44,661 nucleotides of DNA, taken from the NCBI GenBank assembly GCA_030524635.1, contig JAUNGG010000033.1:1-44661 (forward strand), read 5' to 3'. How positions within the stretch are numbered: the first letter of the stretch is position 1; every line of letters begins with the position of its first letter. The notes under the pieces are model-generated. The model was not told the DNA's origin, did not search any database, and was given only the letters and a program-made list of their open reading frames with translations. Origin of the DNA: Lachnospiraceae bacterium (GTDB lineage Bacteria > Bacillota > Clostridia > Lachnospirales > Lachnospiraceae). A program made the translations under genes and the position numbers. Below are positions 8,720 to 29,023 of this stretch, piece after piece.

Positions 8720-9041
8720 AGCATGTCATCCTCTCTTTTCCGTTTTCAGCTACTATCCACCAATTGCTTCAGCCAAGTCCTAAAACTGTATCATTTCCCA
8801 TATATATAATAAACCACGATTCCACAGCAAGACAGATATTTGCTGCAGTCAACGCATCGGCTAGCCCCCCCCCTCGCTTGCAGTGACATTGACTGTGCCA
8901 GACATGTGCTTTTCACTGAGCATGAAGACTGCTTTTTCGGTAATGACAATCTTCTTGGCACAGAGGTTCAGTTCTTTTTCAGACGCTCTGATCAGCAACA
9001 ATATCCCATCCCAACCAAGATGAACTCATCAGTCACGAAGA
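8720..9041 (-). other. 322-base gap with a possible gene remnant and a second G9 tract
   Basis: No intact gene is seen. On the minus strand an open stretch (8995 down to 8861) encodes ELNLCAKKIVITEKAVFML and then SGTVNVTASEGGG followed directly by TAG. The GGG codons come from nine consecutive G residues (8865-8873 on the plus strand). With ten G the frame would continue for about 35 more codons. There is no convincing ribosome binding site. It is probably a decayed coding remnant between two glycosyltransferase genes. Confidence 0.4.
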
Positions 9042-10172: not shown

Positions 10173-10175
10173 CGT

Positions 10176-11075: not shown

Positions 11076-11112
11076 TATTTATTCCCCCCTTTCTCACGAA
11101 TTTCACTTTAAT

Positions 11113-11280
11113 TTACGTTTTTTTCAAGGGAATCAAAATCCATTCATTGAAGCAGAAGCGGGCAACGACTGTACGTATCGCACCAATAACTGGCGTTAGA
11201 TAATCCCTAGCCGGGACGATTAATAAAACATATATAAGCTTTCCTTTATGAAAATCGATAACGTTATTTATATTATTCAT
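11113..11280 (-). CDS. Possible small membrane-associated protein (55 aa)
   Basis: A short open frame whose ATG overlaps the last codons of the preceding glycosyltransferase gene in another frame. It encodes one hydrophobic segment (LIYVLLIVPARDYLTPVIG) and a second amphipathic part ending ILIPLKKT. Only a weak AAAAAGG lies directly before the ATG, so expression would depend on translational coupling. It otherwise fills the 200-base space between two transferase genes. It could be a remnant of a larger gene. No family recognised. Confidence 0.25.
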   Translation of the reverse strand: MNNINNVIDFHKGKLIYVLLIVPARDYLTPVIGAIRTVVARFCFNEWILIPLKKT

Positions 11281-12529: not shown

Positions 12530-12565
12530 AATTTCATCTCCATAATCATGCTTATTCAATTGACA

Positions 12566-13729
12566 TCATTCTTGATATATCATATTATTGCTCGAAATCA
12601 AAAACACAAGCGGCAATACTTGTATTGGCGCTTTATTAAAAGGAGACAATGAGATAAACATTCCCAGAATCAACACAAAAATGCCGATGTTTTGATGCCT
12701 ATTGATGTTTCCGATATTTTTGATAGAAATAATCATTCCTTTTATCATGAAAAATATCGGTATCAATGACAATAGGCCATATTGACATACAGTACCTATA
12801 ATCCCAATATCTTCCAAGTAGAACTGTCCCGTGCCGCCAAATTGATTCAATCCTCCATGGATAAAGTTATAAAATTCTGCACTATAAGAAGGATCAAGAG
12901 TACCTACGCCAAACAGAGGTGCTCTTTTCAGAATATTCGCGAAATATTCAATGGTAAGTACACGCATTCTGGTTCCTATATCAAGATAAATCATAGACTT
13001 GACATAATATTGGATGATTCCAAGCACTCCAAGAATCCCAACCACTACAACCAGCAAAAAAATAGCCAATACTTTATTTTTTTTTGATAAATACTTATCA
13101 TAGAAATACATGTATACTTGTACGCTTGCAACTGCGACCAAAATTATCAAAAAAGCCATATTGGAAGACAGAAAGATTCTTACAAAAATTGACGAAACCA
13201 GTGCAGCCCAGCCTAATCTTGTATTTTTCTTATACAGTATATAAGAAATTGAAATCGGCAAGCACAATAGTATCAAATAGAAGTGTGGACAGCTCCTTCT
13301 ACCTAGTAAAAAATACTTTAGTAATGTGCCAATATTGCATAGCACAACAAATAGGACCAAATGCTGCTTTAGATCATCTGTTCTTTCCTTTGTGTTAACT
13401 AAACGTTCCAGCAGGAAATAAATCAGCATGGCAAATGAGAAGTATACCATTTTTACTCCTGTCATCAGCGGCTGGCGATACTTCAGATATGTATAAACAA
13501 CTTGCAGCAGATTTAACACAATAAACCACAAAATGCAAAGTTCAAAATTTTTCGTCTCTTCTCTTAAGCTTCTCGGTATTCCCCTGAGTGAAAAAAACGC
13601 ACACAAGGCAAGCATCTCAAGAATGATCCAGTCTAGATAGTAGATATCTGCGATATATGGACCCGCCATGAAAAAATTTGTACATACCAAAAAGTATACC
13701 AGCAAAATTAAACTAGTCTTTTTTATCAT
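12566..13729 (-). CDS. wzy: Wzy-like O-antigen/capsule polymerase
   Basis: A 387-residue very hydrophobic protein with about ten to twelve membrane segments and one longer extracytoplasmic loop (about residues 265-320, containing FGVGTLDPSYSAEFYNFIHGG) as expected for the Wzy/O-antigen ligase superfamily. It polymerises flipped repeat units on the outer face of the membrane. Start 13729 (MIKKTSLILLVYF) has GGGAG seven bases upstream; an in-frame ATG at 13777 overlaps the previous gene's stop but lacks a ribosome site. Sequence conservation in this family is low, so the call rests on topology, position and the presence of a single Wzx. Confidence 0.8.
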   Translation of the reverse strand: MIKKTSLILLVYFLVCTNFFMAGPYIADIYYLDWIILEMLALCAFFSLRGIPRSLREETKNFELCILWFIVLNLLQVVYTYLKYRQPLMTGVKMVYFSFAMLIYFLLERLVNTKERTDDLKQHLVLFVVLCNIGTLLKYFLLGRRSCPHFYLILLCLPISISYILYKKNTRLGWAALVSSIFVRIFLSSNMAFLIILVAVASVQVYMYFYDKYLSKKNKVLAIFLLVVVVGILGVLGIIQYYVKSMIYLDIGTRMRVLTIEYFANILKRAPLFGVGTLDPSYSAEFYNFIHGGLNQFGGTGQFYLEDIGIIGTVCQYGLLSLIPIFFMIKGMIISIKNIGNINRHQNIGIFVLILGMFISLSPFNKAPIQVLPLVFLISSNNMIYQE

Positions 13730-13776
13730 ACACTTCTCCCAATCATTTCGCACATTAGGACAAAATAATATCTGCA

Positions 13777-14934
13777 TTATTTTAAGAACAAATTTTCATA
13801 CATTCCGCTGATCTTTTCCCAGGTATACTCAGATGCCACTCTAGTTTTTGCCTTTTTCCCTAAATCACGTATGCTGTCCTCAGATAGAGCATCAGCCTCG
13901 TCAATCAACCTTGTCAATGCGCCTTCTTCTGGGCTCCAATAAAGCGCACCATCTTCAGCAACCTCCTTATTAAAACCAACATCAACCAAGAGATTGAGGT
14001 CAGTACTGCCAAGAGCCTCAATTAGTGAGGGATTTGTCCCGCCAACCGTATGACCGTGTAAATACGCATACGCATTCTCACGTATTTTTTTCAGTAACTC
14101 CTGATCATAAACAGTACCGACAAACTTAATTCGTTTGTCACTCCTATAGTGCAGTCGTTCTTCCAACTGTGCCTGGAATTTCTCGTCTGCAGTGGTAATG
14201 ATGGAAAAATCATGAGTAGATTTGGACTTCATAAACTCACGGATCATAATCTCAAAACTATTCTCCGGTACGAATCTGCCAACAACGAGGTAATAATCTC
14301 TTGCTTTCAAGCCCTTCTCATCGTACCATGCCAACAGTTTCTCATCGTCATTAGCCAGCTTACTGGGAGTCAGATCTGCACCATACGCAATAAATGTGGT
14401 ATGAGGCTTGCACTGTTTATATTTTTCGCATATGTATTTTTCTATATTTTTACTGTCACAGACCAATAAATCAGCGTGCTTGACCATCATCTTCTCAGAA
14501 ATTTTCCAATACTTTCTGACCGGTGCGCTCCATTTTGCGCGCATCCACTCATGCCCATCCGGATTTACATAAACAAGACCGCCTAGTTTGTGAACTTCCC
14601 TCTGAAAATGGGCTGCAAAGGGGCCGATACGACAAGCAAGAATATATACAATAGGATGCGGTACATTATTCTCCTTGATATGTCTCAGGCAATAATTTAA
14701 GGCCGCCACATCGTAATAAATTGCTTGTGCAGGGCCAATATTAGGCACCTTTATCTGGAAGCTATGTGCGCCATTATGTACAAACTCCTTTGCTTCGGTT
14801 CCTTTCCATGCGATATGATATACGATATTCTTCTTTCCCTGATGATACTCGGTCAGTTTATCCAGAAAAGTCTCATAACCGCCATAATTGCCGCAACCCT
14901 TGCTACCGACAATATAAACGTGTTGTGCTTCCAT
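13777..14934 (-). CDS. DUF1972/GT4 glycosyltransferase, Cps2T-like rhamnosyltransferase
   Basis: A 385-residue transferase. The N-terminus HVYIVGSKGCGNYGGYETFLDKLTEY is the hallmark of the DUF1972 domain found in Cps2T-like beta-1,4-rhamnosyltransferases of streptococcal capsules, which add the second sugar to the lipid-linked primer. The C-terminal GT4 part shows YYLVVGRFVPENSFEIMIRE, IKFVGTVYDQELLKKI and HGHTVGGTNPSLIEALG with the donor-binding glutamate. It lies next to rmlC, which fits use of dTDP-rhamnose. That donor pathway is damaged in this window, as rmlA and rmlD are broken. Confidence 0.8.
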   Translation of the reverse strand: MEAQHVYIVGSKGCGNYGGYETFLDKLTEYHQGKKNIVYHIAWKGTEAKEFVHNGAHSFQIKVPNIGPAQAIYYDVAALNYCLRHIKENNVPHPIVYILACRIGPFAAHFQREVHKLGGLVYVNPDGHEWMRAKWSAPVRKYWKISEKMMVKHADLLVCDSKNIEKYICEKYKQCKPHTTFIAYGADLTPSKLANDDEKLLAWYDEKGLKARDYYLVVGRFVPENSFEIMIREFMKSKSTHDFSIITTADEKFQAQLEERLHYRSDKRIKFVGTVYDQELLKKIRENAYAYLHGHTVGGTNPSLIEALGSTDLNLLVDVGFNKEVAEDGALYWSPEEGALTRLIDEADALSEDSIRDLGKKAKTRVASEYTWEKISGMYENLFLK

Positions 14935-14950
14935 TGATTTCTCCCCCTTG

Positions 14951-15496
14951 TCAGAACTTAAACGTACCCCTCAGGACAGACCACTTCTGATCTTTTAAAC
15001 GGAGGTTTAAAGAAGTGCCATCCTCTAGAGTATATCCCTCTGCGAATGCGCTGCCCTGGTGCTCGCCAACTAGCTGAAGCCAGATGATGCCGATTTCAGG
15101 ATCGTTCCAAGCCAGGCCGCCTTCGTCATTGGCATGGTAGAAATCATCGCATTTGTAGCATAATTCCGCAGTGTCGGTCAGCTCCACACCATACCATTTG
15201 CCATAGGTCGCAGAGCCTGCACGGAAACCAACTGCCACATCGAACACACTGCCTTTGATGGCACGCACAAGCTTGGTCTGAGGAAACTGCTTCTGGAAGT
15301 GTAGGCCACGCAGCACACCATTGGTCGACATACTCTGGTTGTCCTGCACGAATGGAATATTCAAACCGGCTTCTGCCATATCCCGCTGGCTGTAGGTTTC
15401 CATAAAATAACCACGATTATCACCATGGATCGCAGGTGTAATCACACATGAACCTTCTATGCCGCCTATATTTTTTTTTACAACAATTTGTCCCAT
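14951..15496 (-). CDS. rmlC: dTDP-4-dehydrorhamnose 3,5-epimerase
   Basis: A 181-residue RmlC-type cupin that epimerises C3 and C5 of dTDP-4-keto-6-deoxyglucose, the third step to dTDP-L-rhamnose. GVLRGLHFQKQFPQTKLVRA holds the conserved RGxHxQ and catalytic His region. KGSVFDVAVGFRAGSATYGKW and CDDFYHANDEGGLAWNDPEIGI are the usual following blocks. It is complete. It is separated from rmlB by an acyltransferase gene and the truncated rmlD, so the usual rml order has been rearranged. Confidence 0.92.
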   Translation of the reverse strand: MGQIVVKKNIGGIEGSCVITPAIHGDNRGYFMETYSQRDMAEAGLNIPFVQDNQSMSTNGVLRGLHFQKQFPQTKLVRAIKGSVFDVAVGFRAGSATYGKWYGVELTDTAELCYKCDDFYHANDEGGLAWNDPEIGIIWLQLVGEHQGSAFAEGYTLEDGTSLNLRLKDQKWSVLRGTFKF

Positions 15497-15594
15497 ATTT
15501 TATGTTCCTCCAAATATGTGTTAGGTTATTATCAATATACATTCACGCGTAATTACGCTGTTTAACTCGAGCTAGAGGACATACTCTAAGATTA

Positions 15595-16671
15595 TTATCT
15601 TCTGCAAACACATTCTTTTACTCGTTTAATACTAATCTGCGCTGCTACCGAGAACGCTGCTGTACCCAAGACTGTACCTAAACACATTGTTATATACGAC
15701 ATCACATCATTATCAAACACATGCGCTAAATTCAGTTTTTCTAACCCCCGATATATCGCCATATGGCAAAGGTACATTTCAAAACTGATACCGTTGATGA
15801 ATTTAGTAAATGGGTTGCTGAGTATTCCCATCTCTCTACATTCCAATGCAACAACAAGGAACGATCCGCAGGCTAAAACCATTGTTACCGTATTTTCACC
15901 AATCTTAAAATACAGAAGTAATGTGAAGAACATAAGCAGAATTGATAGCAGCTTTTTACGCTCTACAAACTGCTTCATTTTTTCTCTGTTTAAGTAAATC
16001 AGGCCGCCAACAACGAAATACACCGATGAATAGACGATATTCGATCTGTCCGTATGAAAATAGATAGTGCATAATATGTTAAATATGAATGAAACTCCCA
16101 GGGTTAAGTATGCTCTTTTCTTATTTCCCATCAGATAGCAAAAAAAGGGGAACAGTAAATAGAACACAAAAATTACGCCGAGTGTCCAGCCAACTCCAAT
16201 CACGCTCATCCGTACATTTGGGAGCAACCCAAAACATATTGTTAAATTGGCAAACATTTCATATAACACGCTTTTGCTCGGAGCTATTACCACATTCAAA
16301 ACGTTAAGCACTGCGAAGAATGGCCAAATTCTAGAGAATCTTCTGTTGTAAAACCTGTCCACAGAAATGCTTCCATTACGAATCCGATTATAATAACCGC
16401 AGCACATGCCAAACGCGCTCACCATCATGAAAAGGAAGACCAAATTATAGAATGAAGGAATCATTTTTTGACCAATGAAACCTTGTAAATCATATCCGCC
16501 ATTTGCCAAAACGTGCATGACGATAATGCCTAAAATTGCGTAGGTTCTCAGTCCATCAAGTCCTGGATATCTTTCTTTTTCTCCATTGAGAACTGAAGTG
16601 TTTCTTACACATTCCTCACTGACAACAATTCTCTTCCCAGCTTCTATTGCCCCCACATTTCTTCTTTCCAC
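15595..16671 (-). CDS. Acyltransferase-3 family membrane protein (OafA-like)
   Basis: A 358-residue membrane acyltransferase with about ten hydrophobic segments. YPGLDGLRTYAILGIIVMHV near residue 35 is the family signature with the catalytic-region His, and FYNRRFSRIWPFF gives the conserved RRxxRIxP motif. It would transfer an acyl group, usually acetyl, from the cytoplasm to a surface sugar. The GTG at 16671 is preferred as start because GAGGAGAGG lies six bases upstream; a TTG at 16722 would add 17 residues. It is intact, unlike the other acyltransferase at the left end of the locus, and is transcribed with it. Confidence 0.85.
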   Translation of the reverse strand: MERRNVGAIEAGKRIVVSEECVRNTSVLNGEKERYPGLDGLRTYAILGIIVMHVLANGGYDLQGFIGQKMIPSFYNLVFLFMMVSAFGMCCGYYNRIRNGSISVDRFYNRRFSRIWPFFAVLNVLNVVIAPSKSVLYEMFANLTICFGLLPNVRMSVIGVGWTLGVIFVFYLLFPFFCYLMGNKKRAYLTLGVSFIFNILCTIYFHTDRSNIVYSSVYFVVGGLIYLNREKMKQFVERKKLLSILLMFFTLLLYFKIGENTVTMVLACGSFLVVALECREMGILSNPFTKFINGISFEMYLCHMAIYRGLEKLNLAHVFDNDVMSYITMCLGTVLGTAAFSVAAQISIKRVKECVCRR

Positions 16672-16982
16672 TAAAGACCTCTCCTCCACAATTATTGACT
16701 CACAATTATTAATTATCAGCAAGCTTTGCCTAGGAGATATTCCACGCAGTAACCCAATAATTCTTTCCTAGGAAATCATCCCAACTATCACATGTAAAGC
16801 TATCGCTGGTTCACTATCTCGCACACCAGCCTGCTAATCATCACTCAGCACTCAGAATTTTAACTTCTCCTTCTTGTTTTCCTGGTATTTAACTGAATAC
16901 TTTGACATAGTCTTAGAAAAAATCCACCAATGATTATCTTGCACCTATCTCAAATTGTCCCTCGCTGTCTTTTCTAACAATA
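16672..16982 (-). other. Non-coding gap between rmlD remnant and acyltransferase
   Basis: About 310 bases without an intact gene. On the minus strand a fragment (16936 down to 16852) reads HWWIFSKTMSKYSVKYQENK and ends in a lysine-rich tail and stop, which resembles the C-terminal end of a lost protein. There is no start codon with a ribosome site in front of it. The area looks like debris from a past rearrangement next to the truncated rmlD. Confidence 0.35.
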
Positions 16983-17569
16983 TTACAACTGCACTTCCTT
17001 CAGGTACCGGCTGACAGCATCCTGCCAGGTAGGCAGCGGCTTAAAGCCATTCTCAACCAGCTTGCTCTTGTCCAGTCTGCTGTTGAAAGGGCGAGCTGCC
17101 TTGCTAAGGCCGTACTCCTCTGTTGTCACCGGGATAGCCTTGGTTTTCAGACCATACTGCTTATAGAACTCGCAGCAGAAGTCATACCAGCTGATGTAGC
17201 CGCCCTCATTTGTAGCGTGATAATAGCTATACTTCTCTGTCTCGCATATATCCACCAGAAGGCGGGCCAAATCGAATGTGTAGGTCGGCGTTCCGATCTG
17301 GTCATTGACAACCCGGACCTCCTCATTGGTCTTGCCTACATTGATCATGGTCTTAATGAAGTTCTTGCCATTCATACCAAACACCCAAGCAATACGGACG
17401 ATGAAGCATTTCTCCAATGTATTGGTGACTGCCAGTTCCCCTTCCAGTTTGGTCTGGCCGTAGACATTCAGTGGCTGATAATCCTTGCAATCCGGTTGCC
17501 ACGCTTCCGTTCCCTGTCCATCGAATACACAGTCCGTGGACAGATAGAGCATCTTGCAGTCAACTTCAT
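16983..17569 (-). pseudogene. rmlD: dTDP-4-dehydrorhamnose reductase remnant, N-terminal third deleted
   Basis: The open frame encodes only the C-terminal 189 residues of RmlD, starting around LYLSTDCVFDG and including YGQTKLEGELAV (catalytic YxxxK), RIAWVFGMNGKNF and SRLDKSKLVENGF. Full-length RmlD is about 280 residues; the N-terminal NADPH-binding Rossmann region with its GxxGxxG is missing. At the upstream junction, GGA ATG AAG (a normal start behind the rmlB stop) is fused out of frame to the codons for VDCKM. This indicates an internal deletion of roughly 280 bases. The protein should be unable to complete dTDP-rhamnose synthesis. Confidence 0.85.
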
Positions 17570-17572
17570 TCC

Positions 17573-18646
17573 TTATACCTCAGCCTTTGCCTTGTACATT
17601 TCTTCGTAGTATTTCTGATAATTGCCGCTGGTCACATTGTTCATCCAGTCCTCATGCTCCAGATACCAGTCAATGGTCAGGACAATGCCTTTCTCAAACG
17701 GGGTCTCCGGATACCAGCCAAGATCATTCTTGATTTTGGTCGGGTCGATGCCATAGCGGCGGTCATGGCCCAGACGATCTTCCACGTGCTTGATCAGGTC
17801 TTCGGAGATTCCTTCATCCTTCAGTCGGTCATGAAGCTGTTGGATAATGGTCTTGACGATGAAAATGTTGGGGCGCTCATTGTGACCACCCACGTTATAG
17901 ACCTTGCCGATCTTTCCATCATTGGCGACCATATCGATGGCCTTGCAGTGATCCTCCACATACAGCCAGTCACGGATCTGCATACCATCACCGTAAACCA
18001 GAAGCTGCTTGTGATGCTTGACATTGTTGATCATCAGCGGAATCAGCTTCTCTGGGAACTGGTAAGGACCGTAGTTGTTGGAGCAGCGAGTGATGTTAAT
18101 GGGCATGCCGTAGGTATCATGGAATGCCTGCACAAAGTGGTCGGCACTGGCCTTGGAAGAAGAATACGGACTGTGCGGATTAATGGGCGTAGTCTCCATG
18201 AAGTATCCCTCAGCGCCCAGAGCGCCATAAACCTCATCGGTAGAAACCTGCAGGTATTTCTTGCCCGCTTTCCAGGTCTTGGTGGCTGTGTCATACCAGG
18301 CTTCCTTTGCTCTCTGGAGCAGATTCACCGTACCCATCACATTGGTCTGGACAAAGATCTCCGGATTCGCAATGGAGCGATCCACATGGGATTCAGCTGC
18401 AAAGTTGATGACATAATCGAAATCATACTTCTCGAACAGAGAAGCAACCAATTCCTTGTCACAGATATCCCCCTGCATAAACACATGGCGCGCGTCACCC
18501 TCTACGCCCTTGAGGTTTTCCAAGTTACCAGCATAAGTCAGTTTATCCAGGTTGACCAGGAGAATATCATCGTATTTCTTCAGCATGTAGTAAACAAAGT
18601 TGGAGCCAATAAATCCGGCACAACCGGTAATCAAATATTTTTTCAT
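17573..18646 (-). CDS. rmlB: dTDP-glucose 4,6-dehydratase
   Basis: A 357-residue extended short-chain dehydrogenase. KKYLITGCAGFIGSNFVYYM carries the NAD-binding GxxGxxG, VINFAAESHVDRS follows near residue 85, STDEVYG near residue 140, and YSSSKASADHFVQAFHDTYG provides the catalytic YxxxK. It converts dTDP-glucose to dTDP-4-keto-6-deoxyglucose, the second step towards dTDP-rhamnose. The start at 18646 has AAGGAAG upstream; an open extension to 18748 overlaps rmlA and is not needed. Complete, although its partners rmlA and rmlD are damaged. Confidence 0.93.
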   Translation of the reverse strand: MKKYLITGCAGFIGSNFVYYMLKKYDDILLVNLDKLTYAGNLENLKGVEGDARHVFMQGDICDKELVASLFEKYDFDYVINFAAESHVDRSIANPEIFVQTNVMGTVNLLQRAKEAWYDTATKTWKAGKKYLQVSTDEVYGALGAEGYFMETTPINPHSPYSSSKASADHFVQAFHDTYGMPINITRCSNNYGPYQFPEKLIPLMINNVKHHKQLLVYGDGMQIRDWLYVEDHCKAIDMVANDGKIGKVYNVGGHNERPNIFIVKTIIQQLHDRLKDEGISEDLIKHVEDRLGHDRRYGIDPTKIKNDLGWYPETPFEKGIVLTIDWYLEHEDWMNNVTSGNYQKYYEEMYKAKAEV

Positions 18647-18683
18647 TGTATTTCTTCCTTTTGTTATTTTTTGAATATCGATG

Positions 18684-19606
18684 TTATTTCTGCTTAAAAT
18701 CCATAATACCATCATGGATTGCATCCAGATACTTTCCATCCAGAACATCCTTTAGGTATTGGCCATACTGGTTCTTCTTTAAAACCTCATAGACTTCCAG
18801 CACATCATCTCGGCTGATCCAGCCATTCAGAAAAGCAATTTCCTCCAGGCAGGCAATCTTGCGGTGCTGATGCTGCTCAATTGTCTTTACGAAATCTGTG
18901 GCGTCCACAAGACTTTCATGGGTGCCGGTGTCCAGCCAGGTAAAGCCTTGCCCAGCAGCTCCACGTTCAATGTCCCATCTTCCAGATAGATCCGGTTCAG
19001 ATCGGTGATTTCCAGCTCTCCACGGGCAGAAGGCTTCAGATTCTTTGCATACTCTACAACCCGGTTGTCATAGAAATGCAGGCCGGTCACACAGTAGTTA
19101 CTCTTCGGATGCGCAGGCTTTTCTTCAATAGAAATCGCCTTGCCATCCTTGTCAAATTCAACAATGCCGAAACGCTCCGGGTCGTCCACATAGTAGCCAA
19201 ACACAGTAGCACCCTTTCCGGACTCTGCATTCTCCACAGCAGCTTTCAAGAGCTTCTTCAAACCGTGTCCTGCGAAGATATTGTCGCCCAAGACCATCGC
19301 TACAGTGTCTTCACCGGTGAAGTCAGCACCGATGATAAACGCTTGGGCCAGTCCGTCCGGGGAAGGCTGAACAGCGTAGGTGAGGTTCACACCAAACTGA
19401 TGACCGTCACCCAGCAAGTCTTGGAATCGCGGTGTATCCTGTGGTGTGAATATAATCAGAATGTCCCTGATGCCCGCATTCATGAGGACAGACATGGGGT
19501 AATAGATCATAGGCTTATCATAAATCGGAAGTAACTGCTTTGAAGTCACTTTCGTCAACGGATAAAGGCGCGTGCCGGAGCCTCCGGCCAGAATGATACC
19601 TTTCAT
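18684..19606 (-). pseudogene. rmlA: Glucose-1-phosphate thymidylyltransferase, frameshifted near the C-terminus
   Basis: The 5' part ([67 protein letters not shown]) is a normal RmlA with the nucleotidyl-transfer signature GGSGTRLxPLT. After NVELLGK the frame gives ALPGWTPAP and a stop. The next frame reads [20 protein letters not shown] and continues to a stop at 18684 through QHRKIACLEEIAFLNGWIS. A single missing base around 18945-18947 explains this. The lost part holds the C-terminal helices involved in tetramer and allosteric contacts. Either a real lesion or a one-base sequencing error. GGGGG before the ATG is the ribosome site. Confidence 0.88.
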
Positions 19607-19626
19607 TTTTATCCCCCTATATGCAA

Positions 19627-20592
19627 TCAACATCTGATTTTTAACAATTCCGTGTCTCCCAGCAGATAACATCGTCCAATTCCTGCTGGTAAAAACAAAC
19701 AATCGCCTTTAACAAATCGAACTGGTTTCATTTCTCCATCTGCCGATTCAACTTGACCGTTTCCCGATAAACACAAGAGCACTTGAAATGACTCATCTTT
19801 AACAGAAAATGAAAAACCAGTCTTTACATTTATTTTCTCTGTTTCAAAATATTTACATCGACATAGCACTTCTCGTGAGCAACCAGGATAATAATGTGTC
19901 AGACAACGCTTTCTCTCCGATTGCTTTTGAGTTTTCATATTCATGATCCGAATAGCCTTATCGAAATGCAATTCTCTCTTCTGGCCGTTCTTATCTATGC
20001 GGTCATAGTCATAAACACGATAGGTCACATTGGAGCTTTCCTGGATTTCCGCAATCAAGATACCTTTTCCAATGCCATGTACCGTTCCAGCCGGGACAAA
20101 ATAGGTATCACCCTTGTGGACTTCCACTTTTTGCAAATGCTTGTCCAGCGTTCCCGTTTCAAGAGCATGACGAAGGATTTCTTCTGTCACCGTATGCTTG
20201 AAGCCATAGATCAAGCTCGCTCCTTCATCCGCGTCAATGACATACCACATCTCTGTTTTACCATTGTCGCCTTCATGGTCCTTGGCATATTCATCGTCAG
20301 GGTGAACTTGAACAGACAAATCCTTCTTGGCATCAATGAACTTCACTAGAACAGGCAGTTCACCATTCTTCACTTTTGCGCCCAAAAACTCCGGATGCTG
20401 CTTCAGCACTGTGGGAAGCGTCTGCCCCTTGAATTCACCGTTTGCAATTACACACGGCCCATCCGGGTGAACGGAACACTCCCACGTTTCCGCCAACGGT
20501 GTCAGGTTAATCTTCTTCCCGTATTCATCTCTCAGCCGTGTTCCACCCCAAAGATAGTCTTTTCCACAAGGCAGTAATTTCAATATCTCCAT
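19627..20592 (-). CDS. manA: Mannose-6-phosphate isomerase, class I
   Basis: A 321-residue cupin isomerase interconverting fructose 6-phosphate and mannose 6-phosphate, the entry to GDP-mannose. [18 protein letters not shown] opens the protein. [17 protein letters not shown] near residue 95 and [19 protein letters not shown] supply the zinc-binding Gln, His and Glu residues; [19 protein letters not shown] gives the last zinc His. The size is typical of the short Firmicutes form. It sits directly after manC and before rmlA in the nucleotide-sugar block. Confidence 0.92.
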
Positions 20593-20606
20593 TACTCTGT
20601 CACCGT

Positions 20607-21935
20607 TTAATCCAACGGGAACTGAATTTCTTCAGAGAACTTAATCTTGTCCGCCACGCTGATCTCATTACCCAACTGAACTTCTACAATGTCCAAAGGA
20701 GAAATTGCCTCAACCGTATGCTTACAGCCAGCTGCGATGGTGATCACATCACCTGTACGGAGAATCTGCTCCATGCCGTCCACAATGGCCTTACCTTTAC
20801 CAGAAACGATGGTCCAGACTTCTTCGCGGTAGTTGTGCATATGGTAGGTCATATGTTCACCGGCTTTCATAGACACCTTGACTGTCATTGATCCCGGCTG
20901 CACATCGATGACCGTGTATGTACCCCACGACTTCTCAGCATACATTGCTTCTGTCTCAATTTTCTCAACGTAAGGTTTCATATAGCCACTACGCTCTTTA
21001 TCAGAGATCAGGATGCCATCGCCGCTTGCCGCGACAACGAGGTCTTTGCATCCCATACAGAGGATTGGGATATTCAGTTCGTTCACTACGTTAGTGTTTT
21101 CGCAGGTTTCATCAAGGATAGCCTTGCCCTTGGCCTTATCAGCCATGACCTCGGCCATCATGTTCCAAGTTCCAACGTCCTTCCAATCGCCGCTAAAGCG
21201 CAACACCTGAATGCTCGTTTCCTTCTCAACAACCGCATAGTCAAAGCTAATCTTCGTAAGTGTGTCATATTTATTGAAAAGGTCTCGATAATCTTCAAAT
21301 TCAATCATGCTGTGAGCCTTATCCAGCAAATAGCCCAGCTTAAAAGCAAAGATACCGGCGTTCCAAAGGGCATTCTGAGCAAGGTATTTCTTTGCAGTTT
21401 CCTTGTTCGGCTTCTCTTTGAATTCCTTGACCTTGCTAATGTTTTCGCCATTCTCCGGGATGATGTAGCCATACTTTTCAGAAGGATAGGTCGGCTCAAT
21501 GCCCATCAGCGTGAGGTTTACGCCGCCCTGTTCCGCCAACTCGTGCAAAGTCTTTACCGCTTCGTAGTAGGTGTTGTCAACATAAGGATCAACTGGGCAG
21601 ACCACAACAGCTTCATCCTCGCCAATTCCCAGTTCGTCGTAGAGGTACGTCGCAGCTAGAGCGATTGCTGGGAAGGTGTCACGGCGGCACGGCTCCACGC
21701 AGATGGATGCTTTCTCTCCAAGCTGATTCTTGATTGCACTCGCCTGAGATTTGCTGGTCGCAATGGTAATTTTTGCGTCGACATCTACCGTTGTAATCTG
21801 TCGATATACTCGCTGCACCATCGACTCATAGTTATCGCCGTCTTTGAACAGCTTAATAAACTGCTTGCTGCGCACATCATTAGATAGAGGCCAAAGGCGC
21901 TTACCAGAACCCCCAGAAAGTAAAATAATATTCAT
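20607..21935 (-). CDS. manC: Mannose-1-phosphate guanylyltransferase (with C-terminal cupin)
   Basis: A 442-residue ManC/AlgA-type enzyme. The N-terminal nucleotidyltransferase begins NIILLSGGSGKRLWPLSNDV with the GGSGxRLWPLS signature, and VKEFKEKPNKETAKKYL matches the conserved FxEKP. The C-terminal cupin (about residues 330-440, with SWGTYTVID, HYHN-like MTYHMHNYREE and VEVQLG) corresponds to the mannose-6-phosphate isomerase half of bifunctional enzymes. It makes GDP-mannose from GTP and mannose 1-phosphate. A separate ManA is encoded next door, so the main role here is probably the guanylyl transfer. Confidence 0.92.
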   Translation of the reverse strand: MNIILLSGGSGKRLWPLSNDVRSKQFIKLFKDGDNYESMVQRVYRQITTVDVDAKITIATSKSQASAIKNQLGEKASICVEPCRRDTFPAIALAATYLYDELGIGEDEAVVVCPVDPYVDNTYYEAVKTLHELAEQGGVNLTLMGIEPTYPSEKYGYIIPENGENISKVKEFKEKPNKETAKKYLAQNALWNAGIFAFKLGYLLDKAHSMIEFEDYRDLFNKYDTLTKISFDYAVVEKETSIQVLRFSGDWKDVGTWNMMAEVMADKAKGKAILDETCENTNVVNELNIPILCMGCKDLVVAASGDGILISDKERSGYMKPYVEKIETEAMYAEKSWGTYTVIDVQPGSMTVKVSMKAGEHMTYHMHNYREEVWTIVSGKGKAIVDGMEQILRTGDVITIAAGCKHTVEAISPLDIVEVQLGNEISVADKIKFSEEIQFPLD

Positions 21936-21951
21936 TTGCTTTTGTCCCCCG

Positions 21952-23649
21952 TTATTTCAAATCAAGTTTTGTCTGAATTATATTTTTTATTTCTTCCAGC
22001 TTTTTTTCAGCTGCAGCCTTAACTGCACCCTTGATGCTGTAATAAATTTTGATCTTCGGCTCCGTGCCAGACGGACGAATCGCAATCCAAGAACCATCCT
22101 CCAGAACGTACTTTAAGACATTAGAGGTCGGCAACGTTCCAAAGCCTTCCTCTGCATCCACAGGCTTGCTGTAGTCCATCACAAACGCAGTATCCGCGAA
22201 CGGCGAACCAGATGCCCGCAGTTCCGTCATCATGGAAGCGATTTTCTCCAGACCGTCCTTACCTTTTAAAGTAAAGCTATCCAGCGCATCGCGATAATAA
22301 CCATACTCGTCATAGATTGCATTCATCTCGTCCAGAAGTGTCTTTCCGTTCGCTTTTGCTTCTGCCGCCATCTCACAGATCAACAAGCTGGACACAACAG
22401 CATCCTTATCGCGGGCATGAGTGCCAACGAGGTAACCATACGATTCCTCATAACCAAACAAGAAATCGTAGTCCTGTTCTTTATTTTCTTTTATCTTTGC
22501 CTGTTCAAACTGGGTGATCTTCTCGCCGATGAACTTGAAACCAGTCAGCGTAGAGAACACCGTAATACCGTGCTTGCGGGCAATATCTGCGCCCAGCTCT
22601 GAGGTAACAACGGTCTTGACCACAGCGGGATGCTGATATTTGCTCATATCTGTGTGCGTCAAAATGAAGTTCATCAGCAGTGCACCAACTTGATTACCAG
22701 TCATCAGCTGATACTCATCGGCTGTCTTCACCGCAATGCCCACACGGTCGCTGTCAGGGTCCGTTCCAAGGACAATATCCGCACCAGTACGTTTTGCCTG
22801 CGCTATGCCTAGCTCCAATGCACGTCTATCTTCCGGGTTCGGAGAGACGACCGTTGGAAAATTGCCATCCGGATTCACCTGGTCTGCAACGGCATCAATC
22901 TGTGTAAATCCATCCACACGGAGTACCTTCTGGACAGGAACATTACCTGTACCGTGGAGAGGCGTGTATACGATTTTCAGATTCTGTTTAGCCGCAGTAT
23001 CTTCATATTGGCTTTGTTTCAATACCGCCATAACAAAGTTATCTGTCACATCCGCCATAAAAATCAGCAAATCATCACCAGTAAAACTTATGGTGTGGTA
23101 ATCCGTGATGGCATTGACATAGCTTATAACTTGTTTCGCCTGCCCAGGAACCAGTTGGCAGCCAAACTCGTTATATACTTTGTAACCGTTATACTCTTTC
23201 GGATTGTGGCTGGCAGTAACAACAACGCCCGCCAGCGCATTCCAGAATTTCACTGAAAAAGAAAGCTGTGGAGTAGGACGGGCATGTACATGAAGATATA
23301 CACGGATACCCATTCCACTCAGCACATTCGCTGCTGTGCGGGAGAAGAATTCACTATTATTGCGGGTATCGTATCCGATGACCACACCGCGCTCTTTACA
23401 GGTTTCTGCGCCATAGGTATCCAGCAGATATCTGCCAAGACCCATCGTTGCTTTACCAACGGTGTACTTGTTCATGCGGTTGGTACCAACACCCATTACA
23501 CCGCGCAGTCCACCCGTGCCAAACTCAAGATCACGATAGAAGCGATCTTCGATTTCTTTTTCATCTTTAATGGCTTCAAGTTCCTTATGAGTTACCTCAT
23601 CGAAGAACTCATCAGTCAGCCACTGTTCGTATCTTTCCATATAGCCCAT
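21952..23649 (-). CDS. manB: Phosphomannomutase/phosphoglucomutase
   Basis: A 565-residue alpha-D-phosphohexomutase that moves the phosphate between C6 and C1 of mannose or glucose. GVVVTASHNPKEYNGYK near residue 140 holds the phosphoserine loop, LGTDPDSDRVGIAV near residue 300 the magnesium loop, GYEESYGYLVG near residue 400 the sugar loop, and IRPSGTEPKIKIYYS near residue 540 the phosphate-binding loop. The ATG at 23649 has GAGG nine bases upstream; an ATG fifteen bases earlier is less well placed. It feeds mannose 1-phosphate to ManC and could also supply glucose 1-phosphate to RmlA. Confidence 0.92.
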   Translation of the reverse strand: MGYMERYEQWLTDEFFDEVTHKELEAIKDEKEIEDRFYRDLEFGTGGLRGVMGVGTNRMNKYTVGKATMGLGRYLLDTYGAETCKERGVVIGYDTRNNSEFFSRTAANVLSGMGIRVYLHVHARPTPQLSFSVKFWNALAGVVVTASHNPKEYNGYKVYNEFGCQLVPGQAKQVISYVNAITDYHTISFTGDDLLIFMADVTDNFVMAVLKQSQYEDTAAKQNLKIVYTPLHGTGNVPVQKVLRVDGFTQIDAVADQVNPDGNFPTVVSPNPEDRRALELGIAQAKRTGADIVLGTDPDSDRVGIAVKTADEYQLMTGNQVGALLMNFILTHTDMSKYQHPAVVKTVVTSELGADIARKHGITVFSTLTGFKFIGEKITQFEQAKIKENKEQDYDFLFGYEESYGYLVGTHARDKDAVVSSLLICEMAAEAKANGKTLLDEMNAIYDEYGYYRDALDSFTLKGKDGLEKIASMMTELRASGSPFADTAFVMDYSKPVDAEEGFGTLPTSNVLKYVLEDGSWIAIRPSGTEPKIKIYYSIKGAVKAAAEKKLEEIKNIIQTKLDLK

Positions 23650-23701
23650 AGTTTCTAACCTCATTATTCTTTCAACTGTGAATAAGCTTACAAATTACTC
23701 C

Positions 23702-24529: not shown

Positions 24530-26674
24530 CTAATCCACAATCAGTTCCTCCGGCTCAACCACTCCAGCCACGCCATTATCTCCAAAAGTAGTAATCTCTC
24601 CGCTTCCAGATACCACCCACTCCTGGTCCATTCCGTCTTTTACTTTCGTTCCCTTCATGACTTTACCTGAAGAATTCACCAATCGTTTCCCCACGTTAGG
24701 GATATCAAACACCTGGTATTTCACATCTTTCTCTGCGGTCTGCAATCTACCCTTGTAATAGAAATATCCATTTTGGATTCCCGTGACTCCTTTACTGTTT
24801 GAATCAAAGTAATAAACCACATTGCTGTCTACTCCATCTTCAATGGTAATACGTCCACTGGCGCCTTCTAATCCATTAGTACCTTTTCCAAAATAATAAA
24901 ATTCGCCATCTAGTTCTACCAATCCTCGACGGGCTTTTCCAAACTCATCAAATAAATAATTCTTTCCATTAATCTTGCGAATACCAAATTCTTTTCCTGC
25001 TGGTGCTGCATATGCATACCCGTTTGAACCAAAGTAGTACCATCCGGATTCACCGGAACCATCTAATTCTTCTGGATCTTTCAAATATCTCCACTGAGAA
25101 AGAACAGAATTTCCTGCCTGTTCTTCTGCATCGTCAACTGTTTCAAAATATCGATATCCGGATACTGCAGGATTCTTTGAAGAATACTTTACCCATCCTG
25201 TCTGCATAATCCCATAATTATCAAAACAATATTCCTTCTTATCGATTTCCATGACTTTATATCTGCCAGAGGTAGCATATTTCTTTTTCCCAGTATTTGG
25301 ATGGAAGTAAAAATAGGCCTTATCTCCATGGTCACTGACGTAATCTGAAATATAATCATCATCCGATATCCAGTCCTCTGGTATCTCCAAATACTGCCAG
25401 CCTTTCAGGGCCGCTCCATTGTCTCCACAAAAGGCGATCTTATCATCCACCCAGCCAGTTGTAATCCGGCCGCTCCTGCTAAGGTAATAGCGCTCACCAT
25501 TAATCGTGCTCCATTTGCTTTTTTCGCTTCGATGAACATAACCAGAGGCGTCTGCATAATACCAGTTATCTACATCATTTCCTTCTTCATCCTTTGTAAC
25601 GACATTAAACCAACCCTGTGTCGTAATTACGCCATTTTCATCTGCATAGAGGGAACGATTATCGTTTTTGGTAATCCAGCGATTTTTATACATCAGACCA
25701 TTTGCATCGAATCCATATCGTTTGCCGTCAATCGTTTCATAGCAATCGGTATACACGTTGCCGTCTGGTTTAGCATAATACCAGTTTTCATATTTTACTC
25801 CCTGGCTATTTTCACCGGTGATGGCAAACCAGCCATCATCTTCTAATACACCATCTTCCTTCAGATAATAGCGCTGCTTCGTATCGGGATCCACATACCA
25901 TCGTTTCCGATAGTTAAAACCGTTTGCATCAAAGAAATACCAATCATTCTCTAATTGGAACCAGCAGCCTCGTACCAAAACCCCATTATTTCCAGCAAGA
26001 TACCATTTTTCATATTTTACTCCCTGAGCATCCTCACCTGTGATGGCAAACCAGCCTGTCTGCTGAATGCCTTTTTCATCCACGTAGTAACGGTCTGTGC
26101 CTACGTTGACCCAGTTCTTTCTAGGTGAGTTTCCACTTCCATCAAAATAATATTGATTTCCATCGATGTTGTACCAGCCATTTCGATACAACACACCGTC
26201 TGACTTAGCATAATACCAGTTTGTATATTCCACACCTTTTGCATTTACATTTGTAATGGAAAACCAACCATCCTGTTTCCGAATGCCCTGCTCGTCTGCA
26301 TAATAACGGTCATCGCCGATTGTTACCCAATTTTTTCGGACATTAACGCCGCCGCCATTGAAATAATAAAAATTGCCATCGATCTCATACCAGCCATTTT
26401 TATAGACAGCCCCATCTGAGCCGGCATAATACCAGTCTGTCACGATTTCATCTTCTTTGACCAGATCAGAGGGAAGCTTCTGCTGATAATGGACTTCCCG
26501 CTCCAGGCTAAACCATTGACCGGTTAATCGCTGTTCATTTTGTATGTAATAACTCTTTCCATCTTCCTGCTTCCAGCCGTCAGCAGCGAAGGCAGGATGG
26601 CAATTTAGACAAATAGCTGCACCGGCAGCCGCCAATAAACCTATTTTTTTAATTCTTGTTTCTCTAATTATCAT
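24530..26674 (-). CDS. Secreted cell-wall-binding repeat protein
   Basis: A 714-residue protein with a signal peptide (KKIGLLAAAGAAICL, cleavage likely after PAFA near residue 30). Almost all of the rest consists of imperfect aromatic repeats of about 20 residues of the glucan/choline-binding type (for example GWYEIDGNFYYFNGGG, GWYNIDGNQYYFDGSG, GWFAITGENSQGVKYENWYY). No catalytic domain is visible. Such repeats bind choline or polysaccharide on the cell wall. It lies between loaP and the sugar-nucleotide genes, with only three bases to loaP, so it is probably co-transcribed with the capsule. It might anchor or organise the polymer at the surface; that role is inferred from position only. Confidence 0.85.
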   Translation of the reverse strand: MIIRETRIKKIGLLAAAGAAICLNCHPAFAADGWKQEDGKSYYIQNEQRLTGQWFSLEREVHYQQKLPSDLVKEDEIVTDWYYAGSDGAVYKNGWYEIDGNFYYFNGGGVNVRKNWVTIGDDRYYADEQGIRKQDGWFSITNVNAKGVEYTNWYYAKSDGVLYRNGWYNIDGNQYYFDGSGNSPRKNWVNVGTDRYYVDEKGIQQTGWFAITGEDAQGVKYEKWYLAGNNGVLVRGCWFQLENDWYFFDANGFNYRKRWYVDPDTKQRYYLKEDGVLEDDGWFAITGENSQGVKYENWYYAKPDGNVYTDCYETIDGKRYGFDANGLMYKNRWITKNDNRSLYADENGVITTQGWFNVVTKDEEGNDVDNWYYADASGYVHRSEKSKWSTINGERYYLSRSGRITTGWVDDKIAFCGDNGAALKGWQYLEIPEDWISDDDYISDYVSDHGDKAYFYFHPNTGKKKYATSGRYKVMEIDKKEYCFDNYGIMQTGWVKYSSKNPAVSGYRYFETVDDAEEQAGNSVLSQWRYLKDPEELDGSGESGWYYFGSNGYAYAAPAGKEFGIRKINGKNYLFDEFGKARRGLVELDGEFYYFGKGTNGLEGASGRITIEDGVDSNVVYYFDSNSKGVTGIQNGYFYYKGRLQTAEKDVKYQVFDIPNVGKRLVNSSGKVMKGTKVKDGMDQEWVVSGSGEITTFGDNGVAGVVEPEELIVD

Positions 26675-27489: not shown

Positions 27490-28407
27490 TTAACTGCACT
27501 GCTCTACCAACAGCTCCTTGGCATATCGCTTCATGCTGTTCTTCAGATCCTTCGGTGTGCATTCCTTTTCAATTCCCGCCCGTACCCGGTACTTTTCAAA
27601 GATATTGATGACCATCTTCATGGAAAGAGGTCTTCCCAGCTTGGACAGAAACATTCGGTTGTGGTATTCGCCGCCGTGTTCGAAGTACTCATGTTCTGAC
27701 AGCCATTGTTCCATCTGTTCCCGAAGAGAGGAGGAAAACAGATGAACCGTGCAGTCTTTTTCTCTTTTTCTGCGTATAATAAGAATGGCAGTTTTTCGGT
27801 TGTAGTCCGATACTTCCATTCGCAGCAGCTCGCTGACTTCAATGCCGTGATAAAATAACAGCTCCATCATGACCCGGTCGCGGAGGCAGACTCGCCGGCG
27901 GAAATCGCTGTCCAGTCCTGCGTATTCCCGGTCTAATGCATGGAAGAATGCGTCTACCTCCTGCTTGGAAAGCAGGTTGTCGGCCGGTTCTTCCTTGGTC
28001 TGGCAGACCAGCTTCAAAGGACGGCAGCCTGGAAGGAATCCCTGTGCGACCAGATAGGATAAGTAGTAACCGAACACCCGGTATTTTCTGGATACGGTGG
28101 AGAAACGGAGACCTTTTTCTCTGGAAAGGTAATTCAGATAGGTTTCCATTTTTTCTTCCCAGCTGAAATTGGAGGAAAATGCACCCTCTTCTGCGGTGCC
28201 TGTCGCGGTATCCGCATCAGCCCCTCCTTCTTTCGTTGTGGCTATGGCCGGATCCTGCTCCAGCCACGTATACAGATGCTCCAGATCCAATCGGTATGCC
28301 TTGGCGGTTCGCTCGTCCAGTCCACGTTTGGTGACCTGGCTGGTGATGAATTCTTCTATCAGATTTTGGGAATTCGGGTCTGGGGAATTCGAATTTGAAG
28401 CCTTCAA
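27490..28407 (-). CDS. Tyrosine-recombinase-like protein lacking catalytic residues
   Basis: A 305-residue protein with the two-domain layout of XerC/XerD-type recombinases: an N-terminal SAM-like core-binding domain (residues 15-125, interrupted by a Gly/Ala/Thr-rich insert near 55-77) and a C-terminal catalytic-domain fold (about 145-300). The usual GLRVSEL reads GIEVSEL, putting Glu at the first catalytic Arg (residue 190). The usual HxLRH box reads KDLKNS (residues 286-291), losing His and Arg. The chain ends soon after, without the GH box or Tyr nucleophile. It should be unable to recombine DNA and more likely binds it. TTG start with GGAGG seven bases upstream. It lies directly upstream of loaP in the same direction. 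Confidence 0.85.
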   Translation of the reverse strand: MKASNSNSPDPNSQNLIEEFITSQVTKRGLDERTAKAYRLDLEHLYTWLEQDPAIATTKEGGADADTATGTAEEGAFSSNFSWEEKMETYLNYLSREKGLRFSTVSRKYRVFGYYLSYLVAQGFLPGCRPLKLVCQTKEEPADNLLSKQEVDAFFHALDREYAGLDSDFRRRVCLRDRVMMELLFYHGIEVSELLRMEVSDYNRKTAILIIRRKREKDCTVHLFSSSLREQMEQWLSEHEYFEHGGEYHNRMFLSKLGRPLSMKMVINIFEKYRVRAGIEKECTPKDLKNSMKRYAKELLVEQCS

Positions 28408-28474
28408 GCGATACCTCCATTTCGTTAAATTATCTGGCGATTTTAGTCACTTTATGAGTTTTTATAACTTTTTC

Positions 28475-28490
28475 AGGTATCATTATACCT
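28475..28490. promoter_or_regulatory. Palindromic operator candidate overlapping the -10 box
   Basis: AGGTAT-CATT-ATACCT forms a six-base inverted repeat centred on the -10 box of the recombinase-like gene promoter. A repressor bound here would block that promoter. The divergent Xre-type protein (28643-29023) or the recombinase-like protein itself are the obvious candidates; this is inference. Confidence 0.5.
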
Positions 28491-28510
28491 TTTATGAATA
28501 TTAGAGTCAA
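28482..28510 (-). promoter_or_regulatory. Sigma-70/SigA promoter of the recombinase-like gene
   Basis: On the minus strand TTGACT (28510-28505) and TATAAT (28487-28482) are separated by exactly 17 bases, near consensus. The start codon of the recombinase-like protein is about 75 bases downstream. Confidence 0.8.
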
Positions 28511-28642: not shown

Positions 28643-29023
28643 ATGAATCGAATTGCAGAATTAAGGAAAGAGAAAAATATGAGTCAGATCAGCCTGGGGA
28701 TGAAGCTGAATGTTTCCCAGAAGATGATCAGTGCGTATGAGAATGGAAAGAATGAACCCAGCATCGATCTACTGATGCGGATGGCTGATATTTTTCATGC
28801 ATCGATTGACTATATTGTAGGATATTCGGAGAATCGTTATCCGGAATACCGGATTTCGGGAAATGATTATTCCAGCCCGTCGAAAAAGGATATTACCCGA
28901 ATTTTTGGTGATCTGTCAGACAAGAATCAGTGGATCGCTCAGGGCGTGCTTCTGGGGCTTCTGGCAAGCCAGCAGGCGGAGACGGAAGACGGCATGGAGA
29001 ATGGGGATGGGAAGGAATCCTGA
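28643..29023 (+). CDS. Xre-family HTH transcriptional regulator
   Basis: A 126-residue regulator. The N-terminal helix-turn-helix (RIAELRKEKNMSQISLGMKL, then VSQKMISAYENGKNEPSIDL) is the Cro/C1 type, followed by LMRMADIFHASIDYIVGYSE, the usual end of the domain. The C-terminal 60 residues are short and acidic without a known effector domain. GGAGG lies in front of the ATG. It is divergent from the recombinase-like gene and shares its 235-base intergenic region, where a possible TTGTGA/TGTTAT pair with 18-base spacing (28570-28599) might be its promoter. It may control itself and the neighbour. Confidence 0.88.
   Translation: MNRIAELRKEKNMSQISLGMKLNVSQKMISAYENGKNEPSIDLLMRMADIFHASIDYIVGYSENRYPEYRISGNDYSSPSKKDITRIFGDLSDKNQWIAQGVLLGLLASQQAETEDGMENGDGKES

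What the first reader, a model, noticed from the sequence alone, without database searches (positions are those of the whole stretch)
27490..28407. Catalytically dead tyrosine-recombinase fold at the head of a LoaP capsule operon
The protein keeps the XerC/XerD fold, but the first catalytic Arg is Glu (GIEVSEL), the HxLRH box reads KDLKNS, and the chain ends before the GH box and Tyr nucleophile. The frame is open, has a consensus promoter, a good ribosome site and normal folding motifs, so it does not look like decay. Together with loaP directly downstream it suggests that a recombinase fold has been reused as a DNA-binding regulator of surface polysaccharide. In Bacteroides, active recombinases and NusG-like UpxY proteins control capsule operons; this would be a non-recombining Firmicutes counterpart.
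Basis: partly seen in the sequence, partly recalled or inferred. Interest (0 to 1): 0.75.

Follow-up and report, generated by a model that had tools for sequence, protein, structure and literature searches.

The report
Dead recombinases heading capsule gene operons
A gut bacterial genus carries a multiplied family of DNA-cutting enzymes that have lost their cutting parts and sit first in sugar-coat gene clusters, where they most likely act as switches that bind the DNA site their active ancestors cut.

Summary
The ORF (window 27490-28407, minus strand, 305 aa) is a tyrosine-recombinase homologue without its catalytic residues. I collected 54 such loci, in the window's Lachnospiraceae genus and in further MAGs whose genus I did not establish. 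In 54 of 54 both catalytic Arg, the HxLRH His, the GH-box His and the Tyr are gone, the Lys is kept, and selection is purifying. They head glycan operons (glycosyltransferase relative downstream, same strand, in 48 of 54). LoaP was seen beside the window copy only. Thirty-two of 54 lie behind a candidate invertible segment, 13 of these with an intact integrase inside; 16, the window's included, behind a divergent XRE-type regulator. Leaders of 27 of 54 carry TAACTWCAAATAAY, whose core matches a core site near intact relatives of the dead protein (7 of 10 loci). Exact copies in 11 genus genomes (18) occur only in the 6 with the dead gene: 13 in its leaders, 4 in other polysaccharide loci. Best reading: a recombinase turned site-bound regulator of surface glycans, like MrpR. 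Binding and its effect are inferred.

The parts
27490..28407 (-). dead tyrosine-recombinase homologue, probable regulator (305 aa; R to E, HxLRH to KDLKN, no GH box, no Tyr; Lys kept)
28414..28418 (-). ribosome-binding site GGAGG before the TTG start
   Evidence: read from sequence
28482..28510 (-). promoter TTGACT-17-TATAAT of the dead recombinase gene; near-identical sequence upstream of the XRE-linked relatives L049, L076, L098
28475..28490 (.). palindrome AGGTATcattATACCT over the -10 hexamer; probable operator of the divergent XRE regulator (inferred)
   Evidence: read
28643..29023 (+). divergent XRE/Cro-type regulator; copies 82-87% identical beside dead recombinases L049, L076, L098 and 66% beside L066
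26678..27262 (-). loaP antiterminator (likely true start at the ATG near 27220, by eye)
   Evidence: NF033641 183.7 bits against 125
24530..26674 (-). choline-binding-repeat surface protein, next gene on the strand
4416..23664 (-). glycan biosynthesis genes on the same strand: phosphohexomutase, nucleotidyl transferases, dTDP-sugar enzymes, DUF1972 and family 1 and 2 glycosyltransferases, polysaccharide exporter (10 of the ORFs scanned)
   Evidence: ORFs

Best explanation
The protein is a former Xer-like tyrosine recombinase that can no longer cut DNA and now acts as a sequence-specific DNA-binding regulator of surface-glycan operons. It most likely still recognises its ancestor's core half-site, TAACTWCAAATAAY. 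In half of the 54 loci that site lies in the leader of the protein's own operon, downstream of a candidate invertible promoter or cassette, so the protein, made first when the operon is on, would bind its own leader and equivalent leaders elsewhere. I think the usual outcome is repression or a transcription roadblock, giving autoregulation and cross-locus exclusion of capsules. The window copy is a variant: a divergent XRE-type regulator probably controls it, its leader lacks the site, and its likely target is in trans, the single exact site in its genome, at the end of a cps gene series on contig C77. Shown: loss of catalytic residues in all 54, purifying selection, operon-head position, inverted-repeat segments, element-to-gene co-occurrence, element shared with intact relatives. 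Inferred: binding, direction of regulation, cross-locus action.
For: Catalytic residues: 54 of 54 lack R1 (E 51, Q 2, D 1), His (K 51, R 3), R2 (K 54), GH-His and Tyr (53 end before them; L066, longer, has V and F in the aligned columns); Lys kept 54 of 54; 10 of 10 intact relatives have all six. dN far below dS in eight of nine pairs, the ninth saturated. Operon heads: 48 of 54 with a glycosyltransferase relative downstream on the same strand within 10 kb, 0 of 54 on the other strand (families). Leader element at 0-1 mismatch within 420 bp: type III 9 of 9, short contigs 6 of 6, II 6 of 9, I 6 of 13, XRE-linked 0 of 16, L005 0 of 1; all 34 hits on the + strand; 0 hits in 744,747 bases elsewhere in the same loci. 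Exact hits in 11 genus genomes: 18, in the 6 with the dead gene and none in the 5 without; reversed control 2. 13 of 18 are dead-gene leaders; 4 of the other 5 lie in polysaccharide loci. Core CAAATAAT-N4-ATTATT lies near 7 of 10 intact-relative loci, once in a 62-bp inverted pair round the gene. Precedent for the mechanism: MrpR (PMC10516654).
Against: No binding or expression data. 27 of 54 loci lack the element at 0-1 mismatch: all 16 XRE-linked ones (window included; two have a 2-mismatch hit), L005, 7 of 13 type I and 3 of 9 type II. In the own genome there is one exact site, and hits at up to one mismatch (5) do not exceed the reversed control (8). The element could be bound by another protein; the intact relative was found in only 2 of 11 genus genomes (E up to 1e-50), so it hardly explains all sites, but an unknown factor could. 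Three of 10 intact-relative loci showed no such site (L159, L160; L188 in a 3.9-kb piece), and four of the 10 loci come in same-genus pairs. Type III leaders have half-sites without the right arm. One of the extra sites, L162, points away from the operon it precedes, and one, L177, lies beside a methylase-like gene (by eye). The fit of promoter type to protein clade may be plain inheritance of the module. No structure model could be made.
Confidence: 0.66

Rival explanations
1. The dead protein is an accessory or dominant-negative subunit that tunes inversion by the active recombinases: it binds recombination sites, blocks or directs synapsis and so locks the orientation of capsule promoters, and does not act on transcription itself.
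For: 32 of 54 copies lie just downstream of segments with long inverted repeats; an intact integrase lies in that segment in 13; switch type and protein clade are clustered (12 changes against 27.9 in shuffles).
Against: The leader element lies outside the inverted repeats and differs from them in sequence. The same family heads operons with three kinds of upstream control, including 16 XRE-linked loci with no convincing inverted repeat. The intact cousin that would share its site was not found in 9 of 11 genus genomes.
Confidence: 0.17
2. The leader element belongs to another regulator, and the dead recombinase has some other role in the operon.
For: The element also occurs at four polysaccharide loci without the gene next to it and is missing at 0-1 mismatch in 27 of 54 loci that have the gene.
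Against: The exact element is present only in genomes with the gene (6 of 6 against 0 of 5) and its core equals the core site near intact relatives of that very protein.
Confidence: 0.12
3. LoaP-specific partner: the dead recombinase works with LoaP at this operon.
For: loaP follows it in the window; RNA of the gap before loaP folds somewhat better than shuffles (z -2.29, 3 of 200 as good).
Against: No LoaP-like gene beside the other 53 copies within the stretches examined; only the window's LoaP passes the family cut-off in 11 genus genomes.
Confidence: 0.03
4. Decaying pseudogene copies of a recombinase.
For: The shortened C-terminus and lost catalytic residues alone would fit decay.
Against: Uniform losses in 54 of 54, an alternative conserved C-terminus (TPKDLK...YA.E), open frames, dN far below dS.
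Confidence: 0.02

Closest known systems
MrpR (YopR), master repressor of Bacillus prophage SPbeta, PDB 8A0A (PMC10516654: outline with abstract, and passages seen)
   Same: Tyrosine-recombinase fold without recombination; catalytic Arg and His replaced; Lys (K169) kept; acts as DNA-binding repressor at repeated elements.
   Different: MrpR keeps a Tyr (Y304) and rules a prophage; here the Tyr segment is missing, the proteins are multiplied up to 16 per genome and head glycan operons. The family profile did not list 8A0A among its 18 PDB matches up to E=10.
Bacteroides multi-capsule control: invertible promoters, UpxY antiterminator, UpxZ cross-locus inhibitor (PMC12632263: passages seen)
   Same: Several glycan loci per genome, invertible segments upstream, a regulator-like gene first in the operon.
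   Different: The first gene is a dead tyrosine recombinase and not a NusG-like protein; a DNA element shared across leaders; different phylum; antitermination and cross-locus inhibition not shown.
Xer-type tyrosine recombinases (XerC/XerD; intact relatives in L153-L160, L180, L188)
   Same: Sequence homology over both domains, conserved region around the KYR segment, matching core half-site.
   Different: No catalytic residue except Lys; chain stops before GH box and Tyr.
LoaP (NF033641)
   Same: The next gene in the window is a LoaP by the family cut-off.
   Different: Not part of the conserved arrangement.
Invertons of gut bacteria incl. Clostridia (PMC11892184: passages seen)
   Same: Invertible segments linked to tyrosine-type recombinase/integrase genes in Clostridia.
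   Different: The terms Lachnospiraceae, Hungatella and catalytic have no occurrence in its text; the passages seen say nothing of inactive recombinases as operon-head regulators.

Membership tests
Active tyrosine recombinase | R-K-H-R-(H/W)-Y catalytic set | tested here: not met
   only K kept, 54 of 54; 10 of 10 intact relatives have all six
Tyrosine-recombinase superfamily (by descent) | sequence homology to SAM-like and catalytic domains | tested here: met
   (SAM-like Pfam matches are below their cut-offs for the window protein; catalytic-domain and XerD matches are clear)
Tyrosine-recombinase superfamily (by descent) | same 3D fold | not testable with these tools
   structure prediction switched off
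MrpR-like dead-recombinase repressor | recombinase homology with lost catalytic Arg/His | tested here: met
   residues; fold inferred from sequence only
MrpR-like dead-recombinase repressor | binds a repeated DNA element and represses | tested here: inconclusive
   repeated element found; binding and repression not testable here
MrpR-like dead-recombinase repressor | detectable sequence kinship with MrpR | tested here: not met
   8A0A not among 18 PDB matches up to E=10
UpxY/UpxZ capsule regulators | NusG-like (UpxY) protein as first gene | tested here: not met
   first gene is a recombinase homologue; LoaP seen only beside the window copy
Phase-variable invertible-promoter loci | inverted repeats round an upstream promoter | tested here: inconclusive
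   32 of 54 loci have the repeats. In type III a conserved promoter faces the gene in 5 and away in 7 of 13 type-III-like loci, not found in 1; in types I/II no promoter above shuffles. Inversion within one strain was not observed
Phase-variable invertible-promoter loci (window locus) | inverted repeats round an upstream promoter | tested here: not met
LoaP antiterminator (window 26678-27262) | NF033641 over curated cut-off | tested here: met
   183.7 against 125 bits

The most novel reading that the evidence does not exclude
A cellular capsule-choice circuit built from multiplied dead recombinases: each operon's first gene makes a non-cutting copy of the ancestral recombinase that binds ancestral recombination half-sites, now used as operators, in the leaders of its own and rival capsule loci, so that the capsule switched on by promoter inversion silences the others in trans.
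Probability: 0.35. Interest if true: 0.87.

Novelty: new variant of a known kind. Interest (0 to 1): 0.75.

Why it matters
It shows a recombinase turned probable regulator as a conserved, multiplied family (up to 16 copies in one genome) at surface-glycan operons, beyond the phage case MrpR, with the inherited recombination core reused as a probable operator. It also points to a Bacteroides-like multi-locus, phase-variable glycan system in gut Lachnospiraceae with a different molecular part in the regulator's place, and offers a short DNA element that makes binding and cross-regulation directly testable. I saw no description of it in the listings of ten full-text searches of an open-access library (searches gave no paper, one search showed 12 of 20, one search showed 13 of 14); subscription papers and bioRxiv were not covered.

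Tried and rejected
Rejected: LoaP as the defining partner. Rejected: a lone mutant copy. Rejected: decay. Looked for an invertible segment at the window locus: none convincing. Looked for the leader element in the window: none at up to 2 mismatches. Tested whether near-matches to the element are enriched in the own genome: no (5 hits at up to one mismatch against 8 for the reversed control). Generic sigma-70 promoter scan in the candidate invertible segments: mostly not above shuffles; a family-specific promoter pattern is conserved in type III. Looked for inverted repeats in short pieces round intact relatives: little; longer pieces gave the core sites. A sequence link to MrpR was not found. 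The scan of genome contigs used two family-specific peptide patterns, so remoter dead relatives could be missed. The profile search of 397 family genomes (E up to 1e-38) matched six genomes of other genera; the four read then and, all six are intact enzymes. The other paper searches gave nothing on this system; PMC13174815 (passages seen) concerns megabase inversions of capsule clusters and LoaP in Eggerthella lenta, a different arrangement.

Dropped rows: six loci with short upstream sequence were not typed for inverted repeats (L072, L039, L045, L055, L056, L059).

Full report
Observation. The ORF lies on the minus strand, 27490-28407, 305 aa, TTG start. Pfam Phage_integrase matches with 59.6 bits but only to profile position 134 of 172; XerD is the best PDB match. 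The first catalytic Arg is Glu, HxLRH reads KDLKN, and the chain stops before the GH box and Tyr. A promoter with 11 of 12 consensus matches lies at 28510-28482. loaP follows (NF033641 183.7 bits, cut-off 125), then a choline-binding-repeat protein and a long set of glycan genes on the same strand (10 ORFs between 4416 and 23664 scanned, all with polysaccharide-type families).

Not a lone mutant. The own genome has a second copy on contig C70, 72% identical by the alignment, with the same losses. Six of 11 genomes of the genus carry matches (E up to 1e-20), 34 in all, 16 in one genome, G305. A scan of 84,980 species with two family-specific peptide patterns found 52 loci, in MAGs labelled Lachnospiraceae, Hungatella, Clostridiaceae, one Candidatus Cottocaccamicrobium, and one 3.6-kb contig labelled Bacilli, possibly misbinned; by the isolate names most look like mouse-gut catalogues (recalled). 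Without repeats the set is 54: 34 and 20. In a 64-row alignment, 54 of 54 have E, Q or D for the first Arg, K or R for the His, K for the second Arg, and neither GH-His nor Tyr, while the Lys is kept in all; 10 of 10 intact relatives (two in this genus, eight in others) have all six residues. dN is 0.07-0.23 where dS is 0.78-2.5 (eight pairs); for window against L005 dN is 0.25 and dS saturated. So the gene is maintained. Among 299 family genomes a protein search at 1e-40 hit only the own genome; a profile search of 397 at 1e-38 added six genomes of other genera, all with intact enzymes.

Where they sit. A glycosyltransferase relative (two rounds of BLAST from five representatives) lies downstream on the same strand within 10 kb in 48 of 54 loci, two or more in 35, and on the opposite strand in none. 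The six misses are the window (its glycosyltransferases start further down), L005 (near a contig end) and L035, L047, L082, L111. First downstream genes include 18 of 54 Glycos_transf_1, 12 Alg14-like, 8 DUF1972 (families overlap, so these do not add up); second downstream genes are similar. A LoaP query hit beside the window copy only, among the 54 (first 34 also); in 11 genus genomes only the window's LoaP passes the cut-off.

What controls them. I sorted the loci by their upstream region. Type I (13): an integrase upstream with intact R, HxLRH, GH and Tyr motifs in 13 of 13, and 19-30-bp inverted repeats (TTTCGCAGA and variants such as TTTCGTGGA, facing TCTGCGAAA) flanking a 1.4-2.0-kb segment that holds it; the integrase faces the other way in 2 of 13. 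Type II (9): repeats of the same kind round 0.29-0.40 kb. Type III (9): other repeats (GTATAC- or TATAGG-like in most) round 73-121 bp; among these and four short-contig relatives the conserved promoter TTGAC-N-TAGTA faces the gene in 5, away in 7 and was not found in 1 of 13. One locus (L005) has a 25-bp repeat pair of its own and a 340-aa recombinase that looks intact by eye. Sixteen loci, the window's included, have a divergent XRE-type regulator and no convincing inverted repeat. Six contigs were too short to type. Inversion was not observed within a strain; opposite orientations between loci are the evidence. Types are clustered on the protein tree (12 changes; shuffled mean 27.9; 0 of 200 as low), and type III is one clade (100/98); inheritance of a module would give this too. 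The perfect form of the type I/II site, TTTCGCAGA-N5-11-TCTGCGAAA, occurs in 5 of 11 genus genomes, among them G111, which has no dead gene.

The leader element. K-mer counts upstream of the 54 genes showed TAACTWCAAATAAY. Within 420 bp at 0-1 mismatch it occurs in 27 of 54 loci: type III 9 of 9, short 6 of 6, II 6 of 9, I 6 of 13, XRE-linked 0 of 16, L005 0 of 1; all 34 hits point the same way, and none occurred in 744,747 bases elsewhere in these loci (at two mismatches the background is 47). The motif was found and counted on the same loci, many of them paralogues; the whole-genome scan is the more independent check. There, exact copies number 18, all in the 6 genomes with the dead gene, 0 in the 5 without; the reversed pattern gives 2. 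Thirteen of 18 are dead-gene leaders. Of the other five: L162/L180 lies about 150 bp before a glycosyltransferase-headed operon (element on the other strand); L164/L181 about 200 bp before another; L161/L182 about 570 bp before a UDP-sugar dehydrogenase and glycosyltransferase, behind a cps series; L163/L179 (own genome, C77) behind CpsB/CapC, Wzz, an AAA_31 protein, a bacterial sugar transferase and a LytR_cpsA_psr protein, at a contig end; L177 beside a methylase-like gene.

Link to the ancestor. In 13 type I, II and short leaders the element (two of them at two mismatches) is the left arm of a core with dif-like inner symmetry, C(A/G)AATAA-N6-7-TTATTT (dif recalled). Intact relatives in other genera have CAAATAAT-N4-ATTATT cores nearby (L153 and L154 at about -210; L155, L156, L157 1.3-1.7 kb after the start), and in L158 a 62-bp inverted pair holding such a core flanks the gene. 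In the genus itself, L180 holds an intact relative about 1.3 kb from TAACTACAAATAATTGTTATTATT, and L189 of the same genome holds TAACTACAAATAATTGTTATTATTTGAAGTTTA. Three of 10 intact-relative loci (L159, L160, L188) showed no site. The KYR region before the lost catalytic segment, where tyrosine recombinases place a DNA-contacting helix (recalled), is among the best conserved parts of the dead family.

Mechanism. Best reading: the dead protein binds the inherited half-site in leaders and regulates transcription, most likely negatively, in cis and across loci. MrpR shows that such a conversion happens: recombinase fold, catalytic residues lost, repressor of SPbeta (PMC10516654, outline with abstract and passages). 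[quoted passage not shown]). The window copy is the XRE-linked form: promoter shared with L049, L076, L098, no leader element, one exact site in its genome behind the C77 cps genes, so any action through this element would be in trans. Binding, sign of regulation and cross-locus action are not shown.

Verdict. Observation confirmed; interpretation partly supported; new variant of a known kind (dead recombinase as regulator), with an unusual, testable regulon.

Noticed in passing
L035, L037, L038, L041, L050, L052, L054, L058, L064 and other type I loci, upstream of the dead gene: An intact integrase (MARHGENIRKRKDGRWEGRY...) sits inside its own candidate invertible cassette and faces either way between loci (2 of 13 reversed).
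   Followed up: partly
type II loci such as L070, L077, L082, L092, L094, upstream of the dead gene: The segments hold TTTATGGTCA-type repeats (GACCATAAA in 8 of 9 type II loci) resembling the 3' end of that integrase gene (FYGQIYGQ codons), as if the small switches arose by loss of the integrase gene.
   Followed up: no
L042, L057, L081, L089 (also L065, L103, L110), between the XRE gene and the dead gene: By eye, a small ORF of roughly 40-50 aa that resembles the C-terminal part of XRE regulators; a possible partner or antirepressor.
   Followed up: no
window 935-1159 and 1568-1793, minus strand: Two group II intron domain matches (RF02005, 109.6 and 139.7 bits) close together at the end of the glycan cluster.
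   Followed up: no
L129, L132, L133 (G111, same genus): Two LoaP/NusG-like genes in tandem before what looks like a polysaccharide gene (by eye), in a genome without the dead recombinase; below the LoaP cut-off.
   Followed up: no
L062, upstream 300-1800 bp: Nested large inverted repeats (489- and 367-bp arms) around a type III switch.
   Followed up: no
L158: A 62-bp inverted repeat pair flanks a 4.3-kb segment holding an intact relative of the dead protein, with the CAAATAAT core inside each arm.
   Followed up: partly
G111:C16:49587-49613, G305:C1:74-1774, G305:C37, G306:C59, G307:C42: Perfect type I/II recombination sites away from any dead gene fetched here; other phase-variable loci may share the recombinase.
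   Followed up: no
window 27215-27495, minus strand: The stretch between the dead gene and loaP folds better than shuffles (z -2.29, 3 of 200 as good); could hold an RNA element for LoaP.
   Followed up: no
window 29303-30163, plus strand: PD-(D/E)XK (PDDEXK_2 / Rpn-type) family protein next to the XRE gene.
   Followed up: no
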